This document shows positions 1,270 through 7,986 of a DNA stretch of 36,600 nucleotides, in pieces. This DNA is from a virus. The stretch's first letter is position 1. The number at the start of each line of letters is the position of its first letter. A program made the position numbers and the translations under genes. Under the pieces are notes generated by a model. That model did no database searches and was not told the origin of the DNA. It worked only from the letters and a program-made list of their open reading frames with translations. The stretch is taken from positions 1-36,600 of IMG/VR virus record IMGVR_UViG_3300020553_000016; one strand, written 5' to 3'.

Positions 1270-1386
1270 TTATCTAATCACCAAGTTACATTTATAGTTC
1301 TTTGGTGGACGTTGAGGGCTGTACGCTCTACAACTAGTTGCTATTACAGCAACAAGGGTAATGATAACTAATAATTGACTTTTCAC
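1270..1386 (-). CDS. putative tiny lipoprotein, 38 aa, GTG start
   Basis: The minus-strand frame starts with GTG at 1386 and stops with TAA at 1270-1272. The start (V/M)KSQLLVIITLVAVIATSC is a textbook lipoprotein signal: a Lys, 13-14 hydrophobic residues and a lipobox-like IATSC, with Cys19 as the lipidation site. The mature part would be only about 20 residues and is basic and Pro-rich (RAYSPQRPPKNYK). The sequence element TTTATTCACGC lies 15 nt before the GTG, and the same element stands at similar distance before the genes starting at 2552 and 2905, which supports this start. Phages use small lipoproteins for superinfection exclusion or as spanin outer-membrane subunits (Rz1). Either is possible here, but no Rz-like partner is next to it. 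Reality of the gene: moderate. Confidence 0.45.
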   Translation of the reverse strand: MKSQLLVIITLVAVIATSCRAYSPQRPPKNYKCNLVIR

Positions 1387-1408: not shown

Positions 1409-2230
1409 AAAAAAAATTGAGGCTGAGTGTTGACCGTCAATATATCATCGTTTTCACAGGATTACCCCTGCTTATACACACTATAGATTACTCCATAGTA
1501 GATGATAGTACCAGTGTTTAACTTCACTCCTGAAGGATCTCTCTCTAGACTACATAGATATTAATTTCTACCAAGCGGACTGGATGGTCCTTAGCTACAT
1601 CCCTGCAACTACTTAGATATACTTTTGCCATCTCACAGTTTTCCTTACGGTACTAGCTGTGCTGTCATATTTCATACAGATAAGGTACTTTGACCTAGAG
1701 AACTAACAGACTTTTGTTAAATTAATTAGTTTAATTTTACAATAGCATAATCCAGGACGTGCCATTAGATTGCAGCTCACTCCCTTTTGAGGAATGCGTA
1801 CTACAACGCCCCAGTGTAGATTACCAGTCTACGATGTATTAAGATGCTTTAAGCCACACCTTGCTACATTGAGTAACGCAGTTATTCTTTTGGTAAAGAA
1901 CTCCCACATGCACCCCACAGGTGTTCCTATTGTGATTTCTCACTCAACAGTGTATGCTAACACTGTAATTGCTCAGAGATTTCCCCATTGCAATTGTTGC
2001 CCGCTTGCTTACTTGGCCAGCCTAACGCTGTAGATGTACGCTTGTTTACGCACACCTTATATACCTGTCACCAGGTTTATCCTAAAGACCATAAGCGGCC
2101 TAATCTCCAAAGGAGAATATCATAAGGTGAACCAGACCCATTACAGGCCCAGTTCACCACTAAAATTGTAAATATGCAGATTTTGTGCCTCAACCTACAA
2201 AGCCTCTATTCAGTGAAGTAGAATAGATAA
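1409..2230 (-). ncRNA. large structured non-coding RNA (~800 nt), ornate-RNA type, class undetermined
   Basis: About 800 nt without a plausible gene, more GC-rich than its surroundings and dense in hairpins. Read as minus-strand RNA, TTGAGGC (2193-2187) pairs with GCCTCAA (1423-1417), extendable to about 10 bp with G-U pairs. Eight U's follow directly (1416-1409), so the molecule closes on itself and ends like an intrinsic terminator. Internal helices in plus coordinates: 2126-2132/2152-2158, extended inside by two G-U pairs only possible in the minus transcript; 2063-2067/2072-2076 capped by a GUGA (GNRA) tetraloop on the minus strand; 1967-1972/1990-1995; 1947-1953/1960-1966; 1634-1638/1657-1661; 1582-1586/1598-1602; 1522-1526/1531-1535; 1457-1460/1467-1470. 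A 5' hairpin may start near 2227. Size, phage context and ornateness recall GOLLD and ROOL RNAs, which occur in phages; membership is not shown. Confidence 0.7.
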
Positions 2231-2246
2231 ACCCCTATTAATATTG

Positions 2247-7915: not shown

Positions 7916-7986
7916 GGTGAGTTGTTAGAGTGGTTATATAGCGGTTTGCAAAACCGTTCACACAAGTTCGAATCTTGTACTCACCT
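7916..7986 (+). tRNA. tRNA-Cys (GCA)
   Basis: A 71-nt cloverleaf. The acceptor GGTGAGT pairs with ACTCACC. The anticodon arm GCGGT-TTGCAAA-ACCGT gives anticodon GCA. The T arm ACAAG-TTCGAAT-CTTGT is perfect, and the discriminator is T, as expected for tRNA-Cys. CCA is not encoded. It begins on the base after the preceding gene's stop codon, so it is cut from the operon mRNA. The D arm is slightly irregular but readable. Confidence 0.93.

What the first reader, a model, noticed from the sequence alone, without database searches (positions are those of the whole stretch)
1409..2230. An ~800-nt self-closing ornate RNA in a crAss-like phage
A gap of about 860 nt in a compact phage genome is unusual. 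Read on the minus strand it forms a unit: the 5' segment TTGAGGC (2193-2187) pairs with GCCTCAA (1423-1417), which runs straight into U8 (1416-1409). At least eight local helices lie inside, one with a GUGA tetraloop and one held by G-U pairs that exist only in the minus transcript. Known phage-borne giant RNAs (GOLLD about 800 nt, ROOL about 600 nt) share size, context and complexity, but I cannot confirm membership. It could be a divergent member or a new class.
Basis: partly seen in the sequence, partly recalled or inferred. Interest (0 to 1): 0.85.

Follow-up and report, generated by a model that had tools for sequence, protein, structure and literature searches.

The report
Divergent GOLLD RNA in crAss-like phage
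The long gene-free stretch in this crAss-like phage encodes a divergent but complete member of GOLLD, a known phage RNA whose studied member builds hollow 14-copy RNA cages; the proposed closing stem is not part of it, and the family reaches phage groups (crAss-like and Lak) for which I found no earlier report.

Summary
The RNA is real, lies on the minus strand, and is not a new class. Window 1420-1814 (-) matches the whole Rfam GOLLD model (RF02032, positions 1-416; 87.4 bits, E 4e-23). That is below Rfam's gathering score (150), so default annotation misses it. The rest, about 1815-2165, is the GOLLD 5' domain: it holds a GAUAA + stem + GNRA hairpin also found, with other stem sequences, in GOLLDs above the gathering score. 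Five other virus records of the same phage group carry the RNA (three lineages in all). Between two lineages none of 235 predicted pairs is broken and 10 change on both sides. The likely terminal helix is UUAGU (2163-2159) with AUUGA (1441-1437). In sister phages the RNA starts 5 nt after a stop codon and ends 8 nt before a tRNA. Its most likely form is the hollow 14-mer RNA cage known for GOLLD (inferred). Related GOLLDs turned up in a 295-kb phage and in Prevotella Lak megaphages.

The parts
1420..2165 (-). GOLLD RNA, whole unit (5' and 3' domains)
   Evidence: Rfam RF02032 match; unit shared with L013/L116/L117/L118 and L228, whose flanks differ
1815..2165 (-). 5' domain (the cap domain in the published GOLLD cage)
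   Evidence: conserved GAUAA-stem-GNRA-stem-AUAAA-like block in 8 GOLLDs; compensatory pairs
1420..1814 (-). 3' domain; matches Rfam GOLLD positions 1-416
   Evidence: 87.4 bits, E 3.8e-23
2055..2081 (-).
   Evidence: same block in L110, L233 (both copies), L235, L236 with other stem sequences; 0-5 of 3000 shuffles
1932..1943 (-). GUGA-GAAA-UCAC hairpin; GUGG-GAAA-CCAC in L116/L228 (double change)
   Evidence: columns 238/243; for L228
1752..1814 (-). First long stem of the 3' domain with conserved UCAAAAG loop
   Evidence: 22 of 23 Rfam pairs standard in the window; 21 of 23 pairs vary on both sides among 7 GOLLDs
1709..1742 (-). A/U-rich linker, at the position of the disordered linker inside the GOLLD cage
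   Evidence: alignment to the model; PMC12286853 for the linker
1703..1768 (-). Helix across the linker: CUAAUGG (1768-1762) with CUGUUAG (1709-1703)
   Evidence: 7-9 bp helices at the same place, other sequences, in L110, L228, L235, L236; double changes. Single-sequence shuffle P only 0.02-0.18
1437..2163 (-). Proposed true terminal helix: UUAGU (2163-2159) with AUUGA (1441-1437); in L116 UUUAGUG/CACUAAA, 7 perfect pairs
2170..2239 (-).
   Evidence: present without GOLLD in L017, L019, L050, L092, L093; 5 pairs with double changes, 0 of 500 shuffles reach the covariation score
2247..2552 (-). 101-aa gene just upstream; in L116 its stop codon ends 5 nt before GOLLD
1270..1386 (-). Small lipoprotein-like ORF downstream of GOLLD
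   Evidence: homologue in L116 and L013

Best explanation
The region encodes a full-length, divergent GOLLD RNA of about 746 nt on the minus strand. It is probably transcribed with its neighbours and made into a stable non-coding RNA. By homology it folds into a 5' cap domain and a 3' ring domain, with an A/U-rich linker in the 3' half, and copies most likely assemble, RNA-only, into a hollow cage of about 14 copies with the linkers inside. Shown here: membership by sequence-and-structure model, conservation of both domains, base-pair covariation, genomic context. Inferred: transcription late in infection, processing (in sister phages probably by tRNA maturation at the 3' side), cage assembly. 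Speculative: that the cage serves the phage late in infection by holding or keeping away RNA cargo such as tRNAs or ribosomal particles.
For: Whole-model Rfam match with E 7.5e-23 and 3.8e-23, repeated in relatives at 81-87 bits. 45 of 46 pairs of the two best-aligned model segments are standard in the window, and 41 of these 46 vary on both sides across GOLLDs. The 5' domain shares the GAUAA-GNRA hairpin with GOLLDs above the gathering score. 235 predicted pairs, none broken and 10 double-changed, between window and L116 lineages. 1-nt indels between lineages speak against coding. GOLLD's usual neighbour, a tRNA, is 8 nt downstream in L116/L118/L013. The 14-mer cage, the two domains, the inside linker and the rise in expression during lysis are from PMC12286853.
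Against: Bit score is below Rfam's gathering score. The model's middle part (about positions 235-275) does not fit the window well. No tRNA flanks the copy in the window itself. No transcript data and no assembly data; the 5' end is defined by comparison only.
Confidence: 0.9

Rival explanations
1. A new class of giant ornate RNA, only superficially like GOLLD.
For: Score below the gathering threshold; no blastn match in 50,697 phage records.
Against: Full-length model match at E 1e-23; shared UCAAAAG loop, CUCAGCCU 3' end, linker position and 5' GAUAA-GNRA hairpin with strong GOLLDs.
Confidence: 0.03
2. A decayed gene or a long untranslated mRNA region with chance structure.
For: It follows a gene on the same strand at 5 nt in L116, so it is probably co-transcribed.
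Against: z -6.05; no broken pair and 10 compensated pairs between lineages; 1-nt indels; unit kept while both flanks change.
Confidence: 0.02
3. A GOLLD relic: homologous but no longer functional in this lineage (no tRNA neighbour, U-rich 3' flank instead).
For: The window copy lacks the flanking tRNA; its terminal helix is weaker (two G-U pairs) than in L116.
Against: Model stems are kept, with compensatory changes between window and L116.
Confidence: 0.05

Closest known systems
GOLLD RNA (Rfam RF02032; cryo-EM of env-38, PMC12286853)
   Same: Both domains, 3' domain model end to end, conserved UCAAAAG loop and 3' CUCAGCCU, A/U-rich linker, phage location, tRNA directly beside it in sister lineages.
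   Different: Shorter (about 746 nt against 833), 81-87 bits against a gathering score of 150; the stem-loop pair in the middle of the 3' domain is of other sequence; no tRNA beside it in the window.
ROOL RNA
   Same: Size class, phage location, cage-forming.
   Different: No Rfam ROOL match in the window even at E 10.
ICP1 ~800-nt abundant transcript (PMC7567579)
   Same: Orf-less ~1 kb phage gap with a very abundant RNA of similar size.
   Different: No RF02032 match found in the ICP1 record here (the same kind of search also missed the Lak copies, so this is weak).

Membership tests
GOLLD (RF02032) | Match to the family covariance model over its full length | tested here: met
   Positions 1-416, 87.4 bits, E 3.8e-23
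GOLLD (RF02032) | Score at or above Rfam's gathering cut-off (150 bits) | tested here: not met
   87.4 bits. This is an annotation threshold, not a structural feature; the cut-off E < 1e-5 used by Kretsch et al. is met
GOLLD (RF02032) | Model stems formed, with covariation | tested here: met
   45 of 46 pairs standard in two segments, 41 of 46 with double changes across GOLLDs; middle segment poorly aligned
GOLLD (RF02032) | A less conserved 5' domain upstream | tested here: met
   about 350-nt structured domain with a hairpin block shared with other GOLLDs
GOLLD (RF02032) | Variable unstructured linker in the 3' half | tested here: met
   A/U-rich stretch 1742-1709 at that position
GOLLD (RF02032) | Phage or prophage, often beside tRNAs | tested here: met
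   Phage contig; tRNA 8 nt downstream in L116/L118/L013 but not in the window
GOLLD (RF02032) | 14-mer cage assembly | not testable with these tools
   needs cryo-EM or mass photometry
ROOL | Match to the Rfam model | tested here: not met
   no match at E 10
New RNA class | No significant relation to a described family | tested here: not met
   GOLLD match

The most novel reading that the evidence does not exclude
GOLLDs of this crAss-like clade, of a 295-kb phage and of the Lak megaphages form a divergent branch with altered mid-3'-domain loops, so their cages may pack with other inter-subunit contacts or another copy number than env-38.
Probability: 0.2. Interest if true: 0.65.

Novelty: new member of a known kind. 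Interest (0 to 1): 0.5.

Why it matters
GOLLD cages are among the largest RNA-only assemblies known and have no known function. Placing divergent members in crAss-like and Lak phages widens their known range, shows that default Rfam thresholds miss them, and gives natural with/without pairs of closely related phages in which the role of the RNA could be tested.

Tried and rejected
Closing helix TTGAGGC/GCCTCAA: rejected, absent in the other lineages and part of a separate element. The pattern CAAAAGTCT..TAG..AAAG in viral contigs: only one of nine hits was GOLLD. A second pattern gave mostly chance hits, but three of the records carry strong GOLLDs elsewhere and one (L228) is a true relative. 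blastn to phages: nothing useful for the window RNA. Sigma-70-type promoter and terminator scans: no more than chance. RF02032 searches of the ICP1, Leptolyngbya phage and whole Lak records gave nothing, but Lak does match when the short stretch is scanned alone, so those negatives are weak. My first pasted alignment of the 3' segment was shifted by one for window and L116 and was redone. Literature: no paper in the library links GOLLD with crAss-like or Lak phages; supplements could not be read.

Full report
What was checked. The gap is real: between the 101-aa gene ending at 2247 (-) and a small lipoprotein-like ORF starting near 1386 (-) there is no credible ORF. The minus strand folds with z -6.05 (0 of 20 shuffles as stable), the plus strand with z -1.73.

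What it is. A scan with Rfam at curated cut-offs finds only the tRNA-Cys at 7916. With E-values, 1420-1814 (-) matches GOLLD RF02032 from its first to its last position: 87.4 bits, E 7.5e-23 in 1.7 kb and 3.8e-23 in 871 nt. In the two best-aligned model segments the window forms 45 of 46 pairs, and 41 of the 46 pairs show changes on both sides among the window, L110, L235, L236, L233, L234 and (one segment) Lak (the alignment is fitted to the model, so it leans towards it). The middle of the model (about 235-275) fits poorly.

The 5' half. Rfam models only the 3' half. By eye and script I found one block, GATAA/G + stem of 4-6 bp + GNRA loop + A/U-rich AUAAA-like tail, in the 5' domain of window, L116, L228, L110, both copies in L233, L235 and L236. 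Each independent lineage has another stem sequence (ACCUG/CAGGU, UCCA/UGGGA, GCUCCG/CGGAGU, CCCCA/UGGGG, UGCAUA/UAUGCA, CAGUG/CACUG). The block turns up in 0-5 of 3000 dinucleotide shuffles per sequence. The pattern was formed while looking at these sequences, so the figures are optimistic; its recurrence in six independent sequences is the argument. L235, L236 and the stronger L233 copy score 178-190 bits, above the gathering score. So the window has both GOLLD domains.

Relatives and boundaries. Six virus records of one phage group hold the RNA: the window, 3300044846_000606 (99.8%), 3300044643_000126, 3300034108_000145 and 3300042992_000159 (91%), and 3300032333_000040 (cut by the contig end). 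Terminase is 94% or more identical in those where it was compared. Relatives with terminase at 87% or less, or with the flanking 123-aa gene at 85%, show the locus without GOLLD (L017, L019, L023, L050, L092). In L116/L118/L013 the RNA begins 5 nt after the stop codon of the upstream gene, and a tRNA follows its 3' end after 8 nt. The shared stretch runs from TTTAGTGG (window 2164) to CTCAGCCT (1420); flanks differ on both sides.

The closing helix. L013/L116 lack TTGAGGC and GCCTCAA, and L228 lacks TTGAGGC. TTGAGGC is the second loop of a two-hairpin element that six phage lineages carry at this locus, five of them without GOLLD. That element covaries in its own right: 95.5% of cells paired, 5 pairs with double changes, 0 of 500 shuffles reach its covariation score, and the slid controls pair 30-48%. 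Its loops CUUCA and UGAGG/UGAAG are complementary and may kiss. A better terminal helix for GOLLD is UUAGU/AUUGA in the window, UUUAGUG/CACUAAA in L116.

Covariation inside the clade. With four sequences (two lineages), RNAalifold predicts 235 pairs; none is broken in any sequence, 10 change on both sides. Examples: the GAAA hairpin (A-U to G-C) and U-A to A-U at columns 683/698. Three 1-nt indels between lineages speak against conserved coding.

How it works. From PMC12286853: GOLLD env-38 forms a D7 14-mer hollow cage; 5' domains form the caps, 3' domains the rings, the linker lies inside; expression rises in lysis; function unknown. I infer the same architecture here from the shared domains and linker. 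Co-transcription with the upstream gene and release by tRNA maturation is inferred from the short spacings in L116; the window copy has no tRNA and would need another way to make its 3' end (its U8 lies just after CUCAGCCUCAA). The cargo or purpose is not known; holding RNA cargo is a hypothesis of the literature that nothing here tests.

Phage identity. Terminase, portal and capsid proteins match PHROGs for those functions; the portal matches Crassvirales records at 22-33% identity and the capsid protein matches crAss-like records. The closest cultured relative by these proteins is Leptolyngbya phage Lbo-JY46, not placed in Crassvirales in its record. 'crAss-like' is right in the broad sense.

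Wider range. L110, on a 295-kb record, has an 85.7-bit GOLLD with a tRNA-model match 13 nt downstream. It led to Prevotella Lak megaphages, whose stretch scores 65.9 bits, E 6e-17, when scanned alone. No paper in the library links GOLLD to either group.

Verdict.

Noticed in passing
L237:1865-2310 (Lak-A1, MK250015.1) and L238: Prevotella Lak megaphages carry a divergent GOLLD (65.9 bits, E 6e-17 when scanned alone; missed in larger scans). I found no report of it.
   Followed up: partly
window 2170-2239 (-); L017, L019, L050, L092, L093: A covarying two-hairpin element with complementary loops, present in six crAss-like lineages at this locus with or without GOLLD; no Rfam match in the window. 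Function unknown, perhaps a leader or processing signal.
   Followed up: partly
L017:3725-3757, L019:2741-2778, L023:3239-3276, L050:1984-2016, L092:1144-1176: A second conserved intergenic motif, GGATGGTTAG..CCCTGGNGAT..TCAAAGGGG, downstream of the first element in relatives; no exact match in the window lineage loci.
   Followed up: no
L233:1501-1917 and 2469-2916: Two GOLLD RNAs in tandem on one 135-kb virus record, 178 and 69 bits.
   Followed up: no
L236:1837-1908: A tRNA inside the GOLLD linker, with an odd four-base anticodon call (ttag).
   Followed up: no
L110:1365-1487: The tRNA-model match just downstream of GOLLD needs an insertion of about 50 nt, possibly an intron; ARAGORN does not call it.
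   Followed up: no
L116:6068-6138: tRNA called Asn (att) next to GOLLD seems to lack the usual U33; may be atypical or miscalled.
   Followed up: no
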